A stretch of DNA of 64,000 nt from an uncultured Thiohalocapsa sp. (GTDB lineage: Bacteria; Pseudomonadota; Gammaproteobacteria; Chromatiales; Chromatiaceae): assembly GCF_913063425.1 (NCBI RefSeq), contig NZ_CAJXYK010000001.1:124001-188000 (forward strand), read 5' to 3'. Both the position numbers and the translations under genes were made by a program. Positions within the stretch are counted from its first letter, which is position 1. Each line of letters begins with the position of its first letter. Below are positions 5,595 through 18,156 of the stretch, one piece after another. The notes under the pieces were generated by a model. The model was not told where the DNA came from, did no database searches, and saw nothing but the letters and a program-made list of their open reading frames with translations.

Positions 5595-5663
5595 TCCGGC
5601 AGTTGCCGGACTGCCAGTGCAGGCAGGACCTGCCGCCGCCTGACAGAACTGTCAGGCGGCGGC
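5595..5663. promoter_or_regulatory. Palindromic regulatory region between cytochrome and sigma-54 activator genes
   Basis: Two perfect inverted repeats lie in the 372-bp divergent gap. One is TCCGGCA-GT-TGCCGGA (5595-5610). The other is a 15-bp arm GCCGCCGCCTGACAG with centre AA and its exact complement (5632-5663). A further half site CCTGACAG lies at 5586-5593. The repeated CTGACAG core in both orientations suggests binding sites for a dimeric activator, plausibly the neighbouring sigma-54 regulator; a transcription terminator is less likely because no T-run follows. A weak -24/-12-like element on the minus strand (complement of 5517-5531) lies 72-86 nt before the cytochrome start. Confidence 0.5.
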
Positions 5664-5817
5664 GGGTGGCCCGGCAGCGCTGAGCGCAGACGGCGCAGCC
5701 CGGTGTGGTCGGTGGCGCCGTTGCCGGCGGCGCGCGGGCGGACGCACGCCCGGCAGGGAACGCCCCATCCCGCCCCCGACTGCGGGCGGCACGGAACCTG
5801 TTCGGAGGTGCTCGCCC

Positions 5818-9376: not shown

Positions 9377-9450
9377 GGCGGTCACCTTGTGGTGGTGGTT
9401 ATCAGGTCTCGTTGCTTCTGGTCTTGGTGGATCTGCTCATGCCTGGGGTC

Positions 9451-9578
9451 GCCGAGCTCCACTCGGCGCGTTGGGGCCGCCGAGCTCCACTCGGCGCGTT
9501 GGGCCGCCGAGTTCCACTCGGCCCGTTGGGGCCGCCGAGTTCCACTCGGCGCGTTGGGGCCGCCGAGTTTCACTCGGC
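9451..9578 (+). repeat. Five tandem palindromes GCCGAGT-NNN-ACTCGGC, period about 28 bp
   Basis: Copies start at 9451, 9479, 9506, 9534 and 9562. Each is a 7-bp perfect stem with a 3-nt loop (TCC or TTC), separated by a nearly constant GCGTTGGGGCC-like spacer. This is a REP-like array, not a CRISPR: the spacers are the same and only 10-11 bp. Confidence 0.9.
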
Positions 9579-9580
9579 CC

Positions 9581-9613
9581 GCCATCGCTGCGGCTCGATG
9601 CCGCAGCGATGGC
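9581..9613 (+). repeat. Capping hairpin A: 14-bp stem, loop TCGAT
   Basis: GCCATCGCTGCGGC, loop TCGAT, then the exact complement. It follows directly after the five palindromes. The loop matches that of two other cap hairpins in the window (9666-9702 region and 17951-17981) while the stem sequence does not. Confidence 0.85.
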
Positions 9614-9667
9614 GTCGTTGCAGCCTTGATCTGACGCGGGCGGTGTTTTTTCGTGGTTCTGGGAGAG

Positions 9668-9777
9668 CACCCGCCGCGGGCGTTGAGTCCGCGGCGGGTG
9701 CCGCCGAGTGAAACTCGGCGCTCCCAGGTGCGGCCGAGTGAAACTCGGCGCCCCCAGGGGGCCGAGTGGGGCTCGGC
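9668..9777 (-). repeat. Inverted copy: cap hairpin B plus three palindromes
   Basis: Read on the minus strand this has the same order as the element to its left: three palindromes (plus-strand 9761-9777, 9733-9749, 9703-9719), then a hairpin with arms CACCCGCCGCGG (9668-9679 and 9689-9700) and, counting one G-T pair, a 14-bp stem with loop TCAAC. The two elements thus stand head to head between dabA and the PDC-sensor gene. Confidence 0.82.
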
Positions 9778-9799
9778 GCTGCCGCGCTCCGGCGGCCGG

Positions 9800-12427
9800 T
9801 CAGGCGGCGGCCGGCAGGGCCTCGCGGCTCACCTGCTGCCAGCCGGAGCTGGGCACACGACGGTGCATGCCGCCCTGGTCATCCATGCGAAAGAGATGCA
9901 GCCAGCCGTTGTCGAGCATCTGCCGCACCAGGTCGTGGCGGGCGATGATGTCGTCGATGGCCTGCTGCGGTGCCTCCAGGAAGACGCTCAAGCGCATGGG
10001 CTCGTGCATCCACTGCTTACCGTCGTGCAGGGACTGCATGGGCAGACCCACGCGCAGGTCCCCGGCGTTGCCCTCCAGCACGCCGATGGCGCCGCCGACG
10101 ACGTTGTGCAGCACCTTGTTGCCGCTGCCGAAGCGGCGGTTGTCGGTGGTGGAGCCGTAGTACTGCAGGTTGATCCAGCCGGCGACGACCATGGGCGCGG
10201 TCATGATCAGCTCCAGGACGCCATAACCTTCGTCCTGCTGCCAGTGGTAGTCGTGCAGGAAGGTGCGCCCGCCGAGGTCCAGCCCGCGGGTGCGCGCCCG
10301 CGGGGCAGCGATGAAGGCCGCACAGCCCGCCAGCGCCCACTCGGGCCGCACCTGCGCCCAGTCGCGGCTGCGGTGCTCCACATTGGCGGTGACGGCGCGC
10401 AGGGACTGGCTCTCCAGCCCCAAACGCGCGGCGCGCTGCAGCCGCGTCAGCTCGCCGGCCTGTTTGAGCCAGCTGCGCAGCTCCGCCAGCTCCTCCGCAT
10501 AGCCCGCCGGCAGCCGGTCGGTGTCGTAGAGCGTGACGGCGTCCGTGCAGGTGTCGTGCTGGGCGCCGATGAACCAGGTGTCCGCCGGGATCTCGATGCC
10601 GCGCTCCACCAAGCCCTTGCGCACCGCCGGGTCGTTCAGCAGCGCCGCACCGATGCGGGCGCTGGCCTCGCCGGTCATGCCGCCGCAGGCGCCGCAGTCC
10701 AGGCCGGTGGCGTGCGGGTTGTTGACCACGGTGCTGCCGTGGCCCACCAGCAGCACCAGGCGGGCGAAGTTGCCGGTCATGGACATGGCCTTGAGGATGC
10801 CCTCCGCCAGCGGCACGCGGTCGGCCGCCGGGATGCCGATGCTGTCATGCGCATGATGGTGCGCGCAGGCGCCGTGGTGGGGCGCCTCCAGCGTCGGGCC
10901 CACGCGCTGCTCGGTGGCTTCGTCCAGGTGCAGATCATCGGGTGCCGCCACCGGCCGGCTCCAGCCGAAGCTGTCGGCGATGATCTTCGGGGCGTAGAGC
11001 AGCAGGCCCGCTGCTTCGACGAAGCTGAAGCAGCTGGAGGCGCCCATCTTGAAGGCCTTCCAGGACTTCAGGATGCCGGTGCGGCGGCGCTGGGTGGCCA
11101 GCGTCTCTTCGGCCTCGTCCTGGTCTGCACCCTGAACGGCGGAGCAGACCTTGTAGGTCGGCGTGAGCAGCACCGGCATGTGCGAGCGGGGCTCCACGGC
11201 GCCCAGCGGCACGTGCTCGATGGGCACGCCGAAGAAGCCGGCGAAGCCGAGCGTCTGCGCCTTGGGGCAGACGGTCTCGAAGGCGCGGCGGATGATCTCC
11301 GAGCGCACATCGATGCAGAAGGCCGCCTGCACCGCGGGGCGGGTGACCGGGGTCTTACCATCGCCGCCGGCCGCGAGCTGCTCGATGAGACGACGCTGGT
11401 AGCCCTGCTCCAGGGCCGTGAGCAGCACATGCTCCACCTCGGCGTCGTTGCCGCCGGTGGGCGTGCGGTCGCCGCCGACACCGGCGTCGGTCTCGCCGCG
11501 GCCGAGGCGGGCGCAGATCTCACGCCAGCGGGGGCGGATGGTCGGCGTGGACTTGTGCTCGTAGAGCAGCAGGTCCCAGGCGAGGCGAATGGCCAGCAGC
11601 TCGACGATGGTGTCATCGCTGCTGCCGTTCAGCTCCGCCTCCCAACGCAGGAGCCGCGTCCAGGCCGCCCAGCCGCCGATGTCCATCAGCGCCGCGTGCA
11701 TGTAGTCCAGCGCGGCGGTCTCCGGGAGGCCGAGCCGACGGATGGCCGAGGCGATGCAGGCCCGCGGCGACTCCGGCAGCGCCTTGACTCGGGCGCGCAT
11801 GCCGTCCTGGCCCATCATGGTGAGGCTGTAGTCCAGGGCCGCGAAGCGCCGCCAGGCCGCGTACAGCGACATGCCGGCCCAGGGCCGCTTCCAGGTGGCC
11901 TGTCCCATGTCGAAGTAGGCGGCGCAGTGGTGGCTGATGCGCTCCACCACGAAGCTGGACCAATCGTCGGCATCCAGCTCGTCCACCAACGCTGTCAGCA
12001 GCGGCACGCCGCCGGCGGGGCCCTGACGCTCCGCTGCCGCGGCATCGCGGATCTGCTGCGGCGTGAGCTTGCTGCCGCAGAGGCAGCCCGCCTCGCACAG
12101 GTCGTCATCGGTGATGCGGCCGGCCTTAAGCTGCTCGTGGTACCAGCTGCGGGGCATGTACATGCGTGCATCGGCGATGCGCCGCAGCGTGGCCGCTGCC
12201 TCCTCGAAGCGCTGGTCCACCAGGCCGTGGAAGGGGTTCACGGCGACGAAGCGGTCCAGCGGCCACACCGGCGCGATGCGGTTGCAGGCGGCCTCGATCT
12301 GTTGCGCCAGCTCCGGCGTCACCGGGTCGGCGTCCGCGGGGGTGAGCGGTGCATAGCCTTCGGCGGTCGCCGCCTGCGGCTGCTGCTCCAGGATCTCGTC
12401 ATCGAAGCGCAGGTCTTGCGGGTTCAT
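9800..12427 (-). CDS. dabA: Inorganic carbon transporter subunit DabA (DUF2309)
   Basis: An 875-residue protein matching the DUF2309/UPF0753 family along its length. DabA is the carbonic-anhydrase-like, zinc-dependent subunit of the DabAB energy-coupled bicarbonate/CO2 accumulation system, located on the cytoplasmic side of the inner membrane with DabB. Family landmarks visible are FVAVNPFHGL near residue 65, the FCIDVRSE strand near residue 370 supplying the catalytic Cys and Asp, and HGSTVVNNPH...DCGACGG (about residues 550-570) supplying the His and second Cys zinc ligands. GAGGAC precedes ATG 12427 at usable spacing. dabB is 47 bp upstream on the same strand, so the two form one operon. 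The pair strongly suggests an autotroph living at low or alkaline-pH-limited CO2. Confidence 0.95.
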   Translation of the reverse strand: MNPQDLRFDDEILEQQPQAATAEGYAPLTPADADPVTPELAQQIEAACNRIAPVWPLDRFVAVNPFHGLVDQRFEEAAATLRRIADARMYMPRSWYHEQLKAGRITDDDLCEAGCLCGSKLTPQQIRDAAAAERQGPAGGVPLLTALVDELDADDWSSFVVERISHHCAAYFDMGQATWKRPWAGMSLYAAWRRFAALDYSLTMMGQDGMRARVKALPESPRACIASAIRRLGLPETAALDYMHAALMDIGGWAAWTRLLRWEAELNGSSDDTIVELLAIRLAWDLLLYEHKSTPTIRPRWREICARLGRGETDAGVGGDRTPTGGNDAEVEHVLLTALEQGYQRRLIEQLAAGGDGKTPVTRPAVQAAFCIDVRSEIIRRAFETVCPKAQTLGFAGFFGVPIEHVPLGAVEPRSHMPVLLTPTYKVCSAVQGADQDEAEETLATQRRRTGILKSWKAFKMGASSCFSFVEAAGLLLYAPKIIADSFGWSRPVAAPDDLHLDEATEQRVGPTLEAPHHGACAHHHAHDSIGIPAADRVPLAEGILKAMSMTGNFARLVLLVGHGSTVVNNPHATGLDCGACGGMTGEASARIGAALLNDPAVRKGLVERGIEIPADTWFIGAQHDTCTDAVTLYDTDRLPAGYAEELAELRSWLKQAGELTRLQRAARLGLESQSLRAVTANVEHRSRDWAQVRPEWALAGCAAFIAAPRARTRGLDLGGRTFLHDYHWQQDEGYGVLELIMTAPMVVAGWINLQYYGSTTDNRRFGSGNKVLHNVVGGAIGVLEGNAGDLRVGLPMQSLHDGKQWMHEPMRLSVFLEAPQQAIDDIIARHDLVRQMLDNGWLHLFRMDDQGGMHRRVPSSGWQQVSREALPAAA

Positions 12428-15500: not shown

Positions 15501-15572
15501 GTGCATGCCGGGGCAGCGCCCCGCAGTCCGTTTCGCCATCCATCAACCCATCCATGCACCTGGAGCCCTGCC

Positions 15573-17813
15573 ATGTCCGCCGTCCTGAGCACCGAGGCCT
15601 TCGACGCGTCTCAAGCCCCTGCCACGTCCATCCCGCATTTCTGCGAAGGGATGCTCTACTTTGCCGAGTCCGACCCGCGGGACGCTGAGCTGGCCGCTGA
15701 GCCCGTCATCGCCGCGGGTGAAACGGCCATCGGCGCCATCGACGCCGACGCCGTGTACCAGACCCAGCTCGCGGCGGACGCCCTGCGCTACACCACGTTG
15801 CAGCTCTGCGCGTCCAAGCAGTCCGGTCATCCGGGCGGCTTCGCCAGCTCCGCGGATGCCGTTGCGGCGCTGATGCTGCTCGGGCACAAGAACATCGTGA
15901 CGGAGGTGGGCCATCATGCGCCGGGCTTCTACAGCGCCATGTTCCTGGACGGGTCGCTCAGCGGCATGGGCATCGAGACCATGACCGAGCTCCAGGCGCG
16001 CTTTCGCGAGCGCGACGGGCTGCTCGGGCATCTGTCCGGCGCCATCCCGGGGCTGCTGGCACCGGCTGGTCCGCTGGGGCAGGGCCAGCACTTCGCCATG
16101 GCCGGGGCCTATCTGCACCCGGACAAGCTCTTCCCCTGCACCATCGGCGACGGCGGCCTGGGCGAGCCCTATGTGCTGAGCGCCATGAAGCACTTCCACA
16201 CGGCCTATCCGGAGATCACCAACTTCCTGCCGGTGCTGGTGTGGAACGGCTACAGCCAGGAGCACCACGCCATGGTCTCGCTCATGGATAACGCGGCCAT
16301 GACCAATCTGTGGCGCGCACACGACTTCGAGCGCGTGATCCTGGTGGATGCCAGGGACTACGACGACGCCGGTCAGCCGGGCGCCTATGTGGACAGCACC
16401 CGCTTTGGCGACGCCGCCCGGAATGCCTTCACCCGCGCGGTGCTGGAGGCGATGCGCGAGGCGGCCGAGTCAGCCATGAGCGGCACGCTGACAGTGGTCA
16501 TCATCAAGCAGCTCAAGGGCGCCGGTGTGCATGCCCACGGTGCCAAGTCCCACAACCTCTACCCCGGCGACACGGCGGAGAAGCCGGCCATTGCCGAGGC
16601 GCTGTCCCGCGGTGCCCTGTCGCCGCAGCAGTGGGCCCTGGTGCGGCAGAACCTCTCCCGCGCCGGCGGCGGCCCGGCGGCCGAGGTGGCGGTCACAGAG
16701 CGGGAGCGGGCGCTGGATGCCATCGGCACCCTGCCGATGCAGGACTTTCCGGTGGGCGAGAAGGCGGTGCCGTCCACGGCCATGGCGGAGATGGTCGCCG
16801 CGCTCGGCGAGCGCGACCCGGCCTTCATCGTCAGCAACGCCGACGGCACCGAGGCAAGCGCCATGAAGGTCATCAACCAGCGCCTGCACATCCGCCATCC
16901 CACCGCAGACGACCTCTACCACCAGGGGCCGAGCGGGCAGGTGTACGAGCCCCTGTCGGAGGACGCCTGCGCGGGCCTCGCCGCCGGCATCGCGCTCTTC
17001 GGCGGGCGCTCGCTGTGGCTCAGCTACGAGTCCTTCGCCATCAACGGCTGGCCCATCGTGCAGACCGTCGGCCAGGCCATGGCGGAGCTGCGCCGGAAGA
17101 CGCCCGCGGTGGTGAGCATGTTCACCGCCGGCGCCCTGGAGCAGGGCCGCAACGGCTGGACCCACCAGCGCCCGGAGATCGAGAGCTATATCGGCGCCCA
17201 GCTGCGCAACGGTAACGTCTACCTGCTGTATCCGAGCGACGCCAACATGATCCAGGCGGCCTACGCCTGGGCGGTGCAGCAGTCCAACAAGGCCATCAGC
17301 ATCGTCGCCAGCAAGTCTGCGCTGCCGGTGCACACCACGCCGGCGCAGGCGGAGCAGGCCATCAATGACGGCGCCATCAGCCTGTACGAGTCGGACAGCG
17401 GCGACGGACCGCTGGTGGTCTTCGCCGTCACCGGCGACATGGTGCTGCTGCCCGTGTTTGCGGCCAAGGATCAGCTGGAGGCGGCAGGCAAGCGTGTGCG
17501 CATCGTCGCCGTGGCCAACCCGCGCCGGCTGTTCCGCCCGGGCGATGTCGCCTGGCAGCACAGCGCCGAGCCGGACGGCGCCTTCATGGACGATGCGGCC
17601 TTTGCGGACCTGTTCGACGGCGATGCCCTGTTGGCCGTCAGCGGCGGCGGCAGCACGGCGCTGGAGCCCGTGCTGCTGCGCACCAAGTCACCGGCCCGGG
17701 ACCTCATCGCCTGGCAGCGCGGCGAGACCACCGCAAGCCCGGCGGAGATCATGGCGTTCAACGGCATCACCGGCGAGGCCTTGCGCGACCGTGCCACCCG
17801 CCTGCTCGGCTAG
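15573..17813 (+). CDS. Phosphoketolase-like thiamine-diphosphate enzyme
   Basis: A 746-residue protein of the transketolase/phosphoketolase superfamily. Features: an SGHPGG active-site segment near residue 90, the ThDP motif from GDGGLGEP to LPVLVWNGYS (comparable with GDG...LPILHLNGY of phosphoketolases), the pyrimidine-binding part WLSYESFAINGWP, then NGWTHQRPEIE, NVYLLYPSDANMI and SIVASKSALPVHTT. The last three align by order and spacing with the phosphoketolase HNGFSHQDP, VYLPPDAN and VAGKQPAP segments. It is therefore nearer to phosphoketolase (which splits xylulose-5-P or fructose-6-P to acetyl-phosphate) than to transketolase, but is divergent and a little short (usual about 790). Real substrate uncertain. 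ATG 15573 has TGGAG upstream. A sugar-acid kinase follows after a repeat cluster. Confidence 0.72.
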   Translation: MSAVLSTEAFDASQAPATSIPHFCEGMLYFAESDPRDAELAAEPVIAAGETAIGAIDADAVYQTQLAADALRYTTLQLCASKQSGHPGGFASSADAVAALMLLGHKNIVTEVGHHAPGFYSAMFLDGSLSGMGIETMTELQARFRERDGLLGHLSGAIPGLLAPAGPLGQGQHFAMAGAYLHPDKLFPCTIGDGGLGEPYVLSAMKHFHTAYPEITNFLPVLVWNGYSQEHHAMVSLMDNAAMTNLWRAHDFERVILVDARDYDDAGQPGAYVDSTRFGDAARNAFTRAVLEAMREAAESAMSGTLTVVIIKQLKGAGVHAHGAKSHNLYPGDTAEKPAIAEALSRGALSPQQWALVRQNLSRAGGGPAAEVAVTERERALDAIGTLPMQDFPVGEKAVPSTAMAEMVAALGERDPAFIVSNADGTEASAMKVINQRLHIRHPTADDLYHQGPSGQVYEPLSEDACAGLAAGIALFGGRSLWLSYESFAINGWPIVQTVGQAMAELRRKTPAVVSMFTAGALEQGRNGWTHQRPEIESYIGAQLRNGNVYLLYPSDANMIQAAYAWAVQQSNKAISIVASKSALPVHTTPAQAEQAINDGAISLYESDSGDGPLVVFAVTGDMVLLPVFAAKDQLEAAGKRVRIVAVANPRRLFRPGDVAWQHSAEPDGAFMDDAAFADLFDGDALLAVSGGGSTALEPVLLRTKSPARDLIAWQRGETTASPAEIMAFNGITGEALRDRATRLLG

Positions 17814-17838: not shown

Positions 17839-17981
17839 GCCGAGCTTCACTCGGCCAAATCCCACGGGCGCCGTCCCTGGGGCCGCCGAGTTTCACTCGG
17901 CGAAATCCCACGGGCGCCGCCCCTGGGGCCGCCGAGTTTCACTCGGCCACATCCGGCGTGGGCTCAATGCCCGCGCCGGAT
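17839..17981 (+). repeat. Three GCCGAG..CTCGGC palindromes (period 46 bp) plus cap hairpin C
   Basis: Copies at 17839, 17885 and 17931 (loop CTTC or TTC context) with a constant AAATCCCACGGGCGCC-containing spacer. They are followed by hairpin 17951-17981: arm ATCCGGCGTGGGC, loop TCAAT, arm GCCCGCGCCGGAT, 13 pairs with one G-T. The architecture equals that of the elements at 9451-9777. It lies in the 343-bp gap between two plus-strand genes; the rest of the gap (17982-18156) shows nothing else. Confidence 0.88.
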
Positions 17982-18156
17982 GCTGTCAAGCGAAAGCAGC
18001 CTCCTCACACGGCGAATCACAAGCAAAGCCCAAACCGATCCCCCACAACGCCCCCGCCGCGGCATCGCGCCGCACCGGCGGCGGGCCGAGTGGAGCCGGG
18101 CGGCCCGGGCGGGCTCGCGCTCGGCGGCCCCGGGCAGCGCATTCACCGAGAGCAGC

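What the first reader, a model, noticed from the sequence alone, without database searches (positions are those of the whole stretch)
9451..9777. Tandem palindromes capped by hairpins with a conserved loop but locus-specific stems
At 9451-9613 five GCCGAGT-NNN-ACTCGGC hairpins are followed by a hairpin with stem GCCATCGCTGCGGC and loop TCGAT. The inverted element (9668-9777) ends in a hairpin whose stem is CACCCGCCGCGGRC with loop TCAAC, and the element at 17839-17981 ends in ATCCGGCGTGGGC with loop TCAAT. The stems share no sequence yet all pair over 13-14 bp. Paired stems that differ at each site with a kept loop (TCRAY between GC clamps) imply selection on structure, as in a transposition end, a RAYT recognition site or a structured RNA. 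I do not know a described family with this architecture.
Basis: partly seen in the sequence, partly recalled or inferred. Interest (0 to 1): 0.78.

Follow-up and report, generated by a model that had tools for sequence, protein, structure and literature searches.

The report
Two-armed REPIN repeat beside RAYT genes
The tandem palindromes and their hairpin caps are halves of a small repeated DNA element that folds into a two-armed structure, recurs in genomes of purple sulfur bacteria, and is probably moved by a domesticated transposase encoded in the same genomes.

Summary
Window 9451-9777 is one composite element: tag CTGGGRNC + palindrome (REP), 2 nt, hairpin A (15 bp, loop TCGAT), variable middle, hairpin B reversed, inverted REP + tag. 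The 17839 element is a second copy in opposite orientation, its A arm decayed at 18050-18101. Covariance models found copies in 8 of 10 genomes of the genus, own included (Thiohalocapsa by inference), and in two other genera of the family. Pairing covaries: 95.6% of cells paired, 63 double-changed cells against 21.4 in shuffles. At one orthologous site six stem pairs changed on both sides, none on one side, one is unpaired in both. In a single-contig relative the four matches reported lie within 5.3 kb, two of them flanking a REP-associated tyrosine transposase (RAYT) gene. Of 14 related RAYT loci, 11 have CTGGG/CCGGG-tagged palindromes nearby, with differing stems. Best reading: a REPIN-class element with two hairpin arms in its spacer, mobilised by a RAYT using a CTGGG rather than GTAG tag. 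REPINs, and REP dimers with two spacer stem-loops, are published; this is a new variant. What the caps do is inferred.

The parts
9442..9578 (+). tag (CCTGGGGTC at 9442-9450) and five tandem palindromes (9451-9467, 9479-9495, 9506-9522, 9534-9550, 9562-9578) on the A side
9580..9614 (+). cap hairpin A: 15-bp stem, loop TCGAT at 9595-9599
   Evidence: covariation
9615..9666 (.). variable middle (52 nt), not alignable with the orthologous copy
9667..9701 (-). cap hairpin B: 15 positions, 14 paired, loop TCAAC on the - strand (9682-9686)
   Evidence: covariation
9703..9777 (-). inverted palindromes on the B side (9703-9719, 9733-9749, degenerate 9761-9777) with outer tags such as GCTCCCAGG at 9720-9728
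17839..17947 (+). second element, B side: three tandem palindromes (17839-17855, 17885-17901, 17931-17947)
17950..17982 (+). cap hairpin B of the second element, loop TCAAT at 17964-17968
17983..18049 (.). middle of the second element
18050..18082 (-). decayed cap hairpin A of the second element (11 Watson-Crick pairs of 14, loop GCGAT at 18064-18068); not in the finding
18085..18101 (-). decayed palindrome closing the second element

Best explanation
The feature is a non-autonomous, REPIN-class repeat (two inverted REP-like palindromes, tags outward) whose spacer carries two conserved hairpin arms. As single-stranded DNA, for example on the lagging-strand template, the inverted REPs pair into a trunk and the caps stand out as arms A and B. 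A RAYT (HUH-Y1 enzyme) encoded elsewhere in the genome recognises the CTGGGRNC tag plus hairpin at each end and cuts and rejoins there, spreading copies; the TCRAT-loop arm just behind each REP is a second contact or spacing element read on the same strand as the tag. Shown here: the anatomy, its rigid spacing, covariation, multi-copy spread, presence or absence at orthologous sites, and RAYT genes flanked by the element or by equally tagged palindromes. Inferred: mobilisation by the RAYT, the ssDNA form, and the role of the arms.
For: Rigid geometry: in element-bearing stretches of seven genomes, 110 of 117 TCRAY-loop hairpins stand behind a tagged REP, 107 of the 110 at exactly 2 nt, against 12 of 180 hairpins with other loops; the same hairpins read from the other strand (RTYGA) give 0 of 122, so the orientation is fixed. 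Covariation: 0 of 500 shuffles reach four of five measures and all five; slid controls collapse. Orthologous site: 6 double paired changes, 0 single changes, 1 position unpaired in both, middle not alignable. Spread: R1 in 8 of 10 genus genomes, own included, at E <= 0.1; R2 in 6 of 146 family genomes. Presence/absence: 2 of 9 orthologous intergenic regions carry the second element. RAYT link: the four R2 matches reported in G032 lie within 5.3 kb, two of them on either side of a RAYT gene; G001's C24 RAYT lies between two copies; the own-genome RAYT at C54:1025-1576 lies among about thirty tagged REPs, mostly GCCGAGT/GCCGAGC. All three RAYTs scanned exceed the NCBIfam cut-off for REP-associated tyrosine transposase. 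Co-occurrence: 4 of 6 element genomes against 4 of 140 others for RAYT hits of at least 195 bits; p from 2.8e-5 to 0.003 over five thresholds.
Against: No excision, cleavage or transcription data. The own-genome RAYT and G008's C28 RAYT are flanked by plain REPs; no TCRAY cap was found in L036, and G008's nearest is about 2.7 kb away, so caps are not needed for the RAYT association. G002, with many capped GCCGAGT copies, has a 73% identical RAYT flanked by other palindromes (GCCGGCA and GCCGGCG, tag CCGGGAGC). G003 and G073 have copies but no RAYT hit at E <= 1e-15. Three of 14 RAYT loci had no tagged palindrome: G099 C38 (64%), G165 (63%), G001 C52 (47%). Four of the eight 195-bit RAYT genomes have no R2 match. 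The co-occurrence test ignores phylogeny and its threshold was chosen after seeing the hits. No target-site duplication or exact empty-site junction was established, and many G001 copies share sequence beyond the outer tag, so the mobile unit is not fixed.
Confidence: 0.65

Rival explanations
1. Structured RNA element: transcripts running off a gene's 3' end fold REP and cap hairpins that stabilise mRNA or end transcription, and selection acts on RNA.
For: Both window copies lie 23-26 bp from the stop of a long ORF (9800-12427 on -, 15501-17813 on +). Wobble G-T outnumbers A-C on the REP-to-cap strand (A arm 24:13, B arm 15:1), as expected if that strand must fold as RNA or ssDNA.
Against: No terminator-like site in either region. 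Each arm favours its own strand, which no single transcript gives. No Rfam match to the element above threshold. At 9451 the A arm reads against the direction of the adjacent ORFs.
Confidence: 0.15
2. Neutral palindrome upkeep: replication template-switching in quasi-palindromes, or conversion from other copies, keeps stems paired without selection on structure.
For: Stems are GC-rich and near perfect; copies are numerous enough for conversion; some copies have lost a whole arm (G032 element 1 and L141 element 1), as palindromes do. That such processes exist is recalled knowledge, not from a call.
Against: The loop is conserved and strand-oriented, the spacing to the REP is fixed, and arms A and B keep distinct loop-proximal pairs; palindrome correction alone explains none of these. 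Conversion from other copies is not excluded.
Confidence: 0.13
3. Ordinary REP arrays beside unrelated gene terminators; the caps are coincidental neighbours.
For: Many arrays lack caps.
Against: Fixed 2-nt spacing in 107 of 110, a common TCRAY loop, A+B pairing in three genera; no T tract.
Confidence: 0.02

Closest known systems
REPINs (REP doublets forming hairpins; Bertels and Rainey 2011, PMC3116915; abstract, outline and part 1 of the section 'The replicative unit' seen)
   Same: Two inverted REPs, a spacer whose length and folding matter more than its sequence, compensatory changes in the stem, association with RAYTs, and tandem clusters.
   Different: The consensus GI REPIN there folds into one long hairpin; here the spacer carries two separate 15-bp arms with a conserved TCRAT loop, and the tag is CTGGGRNC.
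REP head-head dimers with structured spacers, notably Agrobacterium tumefaciens CGTC-3 dimers with two stem-loops at the spacer ends (Di Nocera et al. 2013, PMC3733652; section 16 and passages seen, figures not held)
   Same: REP - stem-loop - spacer - stem-loop - REP; the paper gives the two stem-loops 20-23 bp apart.
   Different: CGTC REPs have no associated transposase in that paper; tag, taxon and loop differ; here the middle between the arms is about 40-120 nt.
TIRtrons / TIRYTs, and degenerate REPs adjoined to unrelated stem-loops in Pseudomonas putida and P. fluorescens (same paper, section 16)
   Same: RAYT-like genes flanked by non-GTAG repeats, some double-palindromic, some sharing a G-rich motif (GGGGWSAS).
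   Different: That motif is not the CTGGGRNC tag; the TIR sequences are in figures I could not see, so a relationship cannot be excluded.
TnpA(REP) recognition (Corneloup et al. 2021, PMC8266576; passages seen) and the TnpAY1 subclasses (Quentin et al. 2018, PMC6006769; section 12 and passages seen)
   Same: HUH-type and Y---NP motifs are conserved in the 10 aligned RAYTs; for the Stenotrophomonas and Marinomonas enzymes certain loop positions tolerated no mutation, so a kept loop fits.
   Different: Canonical REPs carry GT[AG]G; atypical structures are reported for subclass 2.6 and class 3. I did not assign these RAYTs to a subclass.

Membership tests
REP/REPIN | two REP palindromes in inverted orientation, tag outward, around a spacer | tested here: met
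REP/REPIN | high copy number | tested here: met
   163 palindromes at <= 1 mismatch in the own genome against 14 for the reversed control
REP/REPIN | intergenic location | tested here: inconclusive
   both window copies lie between long ORFs; the other copies were not tested
REP/REPIN | 5' GT[AG]G tetranucleotide at the hairpin foot | tested here: not met
   the tag seen is CTGGGRNC
REP/REPIN | RAYT gene flanked by the repeat (REPtron) | tested here: met
   capped copies in G032 and G001 C24, plain REPs in G000 and G008; other palindromes in G002
REP/REPIN | mobility or cleavage by the RAYT | not testable with these tools
   needs biochemistry or read data
RAYT (the linked protein) | NF047646 above cut-off; HUH and Y---NP motifs | tested here: met
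   3 of 3 proteins scanned, 89-95.8 bits against 80; motif columns in the 10-row alignment; 4ER8 TnpArep at E 1e-5 for one of them
IS200/IS605 insertion sequence | NF033573 transposase above cut-off | tested here: not met
   21.6-35.8 bits against 55
intrinsic terminator | hairpin followed by a T tract | tested here: not met
   0 found in each of the two window regions
Rfam RNA family | match above the gathering score | tested here: not met
   only a tRNA elsewhere in the window; sub-threshold hits only at 9400-9800

The most novel reading that the evidence does not exclude
A RAYT clade of Chromatiaceae uses a CTGGG tag and, in some genera, a bipartite substrate: each end offers two hairpins, a REP whose stem changes by species and a TCRAT-loop arm at a fixed 2-nt spacing, so that the enzyme reads tag, loop and geometry while both stems drift under pairing. 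The element would then be a four-hairpin folded ssDNA substrate rather than a simple REPIN.
Probability: 0.35. Interest if true: 0.68.

Novelty: new variant of a known kind. Interest (0 to 1): 0.52.

Why it matters
How REPs and REPINs spread, and what their enzymes see, is still open. Here stems vary by copy and species while tag, loop and spacing hold, so the sequence data already separate parts likely to be read from parts that may only need to pair. Several species carry the same architecture with different REP stems and related RAYTs, which makes enzyme-substrate matching directly testable.

Tried and rejected
Chance pairing: rejected. Terminator: no pattern match. Known RNA family: nothing above threshold for the element; the sub-threshold names are treated as chance. 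A third conserved arm in the middle was looked for by eye in the folds and did not look consistent; it was not tested formally. Strand preference: G-T over A-C on the REP-to-cap strand is clear for arm B (15:1) and weak for arm A (24:13, p 0.10); an earlier, smaller count gave A 14:12 and B 15:3. Stems are not independent, so this is only suggestive. Two alignments of A and B arms together gained a gap that breaks one class and were not used further; A and B were kept apart. The genome-contig scan gave 22 stretches: 15 from one Thiohalocapsa assembly and 7 single hits in other taxa, which I did not examine. The idea that the unit is a circle junction (capB-REP-REP-capA, as in own-genome contig C74) was set aside because the tag-to-tag interval recurs in the G001 copies, but shared sequence beyond the tags leaves the unit open. 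A first co-occurrence count was relabelled by score and repeated over five thresholds.

Full report
WHAT IS THERE. The three hairpins exist as described. In the window's own genome the palindrome GCCGAGT-NNN-ACTCGGC (up to 1 mismatch) occurs 163 times against 14 for the reversed control. In 30 own-genome stretches (L013-L042, taken around the places listed), 342 palindrome-strand instances were tested for a 14-bp stem beginning 2 nt behind the palindrome: 10 are caps, and the distribution is bimodal.

THE UNIT. A pattern for palindrome plus loop matched 2 of 56 genomes: the own one (6) and a congener, G002 (19). In G002 many caps come in convergent pairs about 110-140 bp apart: tag - REP - cap A - middle - cap B reversed - REP - tag; others show only one arm within the stretch printed. 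The window's 9451-9777 is exactly this; folded as single-stranded DNA, 9552-9727 gives a REP trunk and two arms, -72.7 kcal/mol against -40.3 +/- 3.2 in 200 shuffles, z -10.1. The 17839 element reads the same way in the opposite orientation, with its A arm decayed.

COVARIATION. On 11 cores, 95.5% of cells pair against 89.7% in shuffles, with 20 double-changed cells against 4.9. On 25 cores from four genomes (G000, G001, G002, G008), 95.6% against 87.2%, 63 against 21.4, 12 pairs with double changes; partners slid by 1-3 columns fall to 31-53% paired. Related copies inflate such counts, so one site was compared directly: the locus at 9451-9777 and its ortholog in G002 (flanking protein 87% identical) differ by six double paired changes, no single change, and one position unpaired in both, while the middle cannot be usefully aligned.

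SPREAD. Model R1 matched 8 of 10 genus genomes at E <= 0.1 (150 candidates scored per genome): G001 116, G002 47, G000 22, G008 19, G003 4, G007 2, G004 2, G005 1; G006 and G009 none. Matches near E 0.1 may be chance and the E-values are rough. In G001 the REP is GCCGGCT..AGCCGGC with the same architecture. Model R2 matched 6 of 146 family genomes at E <= 0.001: G000 16, G001 21, G003 2, G008 13, and G032 4 and G073 21 from two other genera. That search scored only 21 candidates per genome with stricter filters, so counts are lower bounds (G001 and G073 sit at the limit), and G002 does not appear among its matches, so it was presumably not in the draw.

GAIN AND LOSS. Locus 9451: of four likely orthologs (81-100% protein identity), G000 and G002 hold the full element, G008 only a B half with a changed REP and stem, G009 none; hits of 42-47% identity were not inspected. 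Locus 17839: 9 of 10 genomes gave the flanking gene; G000 and G002 carry the element, in opposite orientations, and 7 do not, G007 having a lone degenerate palindrome.

THE ENZYME. Y1 transposase genes occur in 9 of 10 genus genomes. One group of them is tied to these repeats. In G032, a single-contig genome, the four R2 matches lie at 2588709-2594018; the RAYT gene (2588914-2589468) sits between the first two, about 57 bp from one copy and 37 bp from the next, the first copy having lost its B arm. In G001 the C24 RAYT lies between two copies, one with a deleted A arm, with REP arrays. In G000 (C54) and G008 (C28) it lies among plain GCCGAGT REPs; the cap detector found no TCRAY cap in the G000 stretch and one about 2.7 kb away in G008. 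Of 14 RAYT loci scanned, 11 have at least two CTGGG/CCGGG-tagged palindromes nearby, with stems that differ by genome (GCCGACA, GCCGCAC, GTCGCCC and others), and 3 have none; the detector is permissive and some hits are surely chance, and its 'cap' calls in G000 and G121 are mostly palindrome-palindrome pairings. Against: G002's RAYT is flanked by other palindromes, and G003 and G073 gave no RAYT hit at E <= 1e-15. Co-occurrence over the 146 genomes: 4 of 6 element genomes against 4 of 140 others for hits of at least 195 bits (p 5.5e-5); over five thresholds p runs from 2.8e-5 to 0.003, uncorrected for phylogeny.

GEOMETRY. In stretches from seven genomes, TCRAY-loop hairpins follow a tagged REP in 110 of 117 cases (107 at exactly 2 nt), other hairpins in 12 of 180; the same hairpins read from the other strand give 0 of 122. 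Most stretches were chosen because they hold the element, so the figures describe its regularity, not genome-wide frequency.

MECHANISM. Passages of PMC8266576 report that TnpA(REP) binds folded single-stranded REPs using the tetranucleotide tag together with the loop or stem irregularities, and that certain loop positions are essential for two of three enzymes; I did not see data there on how free the stem sequence is for those two. A kept, strand-oriented loop with drifting but paired stems fits such recognition. I therefore read the arms as part of the substrate, read on the strand that carries the tag. That step is inference.

NOVELTY. REPINs with compensatory stem changes (PMC3116915) and REP dimers with two spacer stem-loops (PMC3733652) are in print. 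In six literature searches I saw no listing that names a CTGGG-tagged REP or this element in Chromatiaceae; these were word searches of an open-access library, and the figures and supplements of the closest paper were not available, so a relative there cannot be excluded.

Noticed in passing
L024:574-644 and L035:638-708 (own genome, contig ends): Contigs C19 and C52 end inside group II intron sequence (RF00029, 56.9 bits) right beside REP arrays, which suggests that introns insert next to these palindromes. The ends of C63 and C64 (L037, L038) gave no intron match; L037 gave only a sub-threshold Gut-1 hit.
   Followed up: partly
L141:2130-2240 and L137 (genome G001): Tandem units on the A side contain tag, REP and the left arm of cap A, with the break at the cap loop, as if copies slipped or were cut at the hairpin loop.
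   Followed up: no
L157, L161-L163, L166, L167, L170-L172, L176 (genome G001): Many G001 copies share a longer similar stretch beyond the outer tag (about CCGTGCCGGCGCGG...CGGGCATACC), so a larger repeat may contain the element there.
   Followed up: no
L027:483-1561 (own genome contig C26): A regular array of about nine units alternating GCCGACT and GCCGAGT palindromes in opposite orientation.
   Followed up: no
window 5628-5667: An 18-bp hairpin with one mismatch (loop GAAC), the longest stem in the hairpin list and unrelated in sequence to the caps.
   Followed up: no
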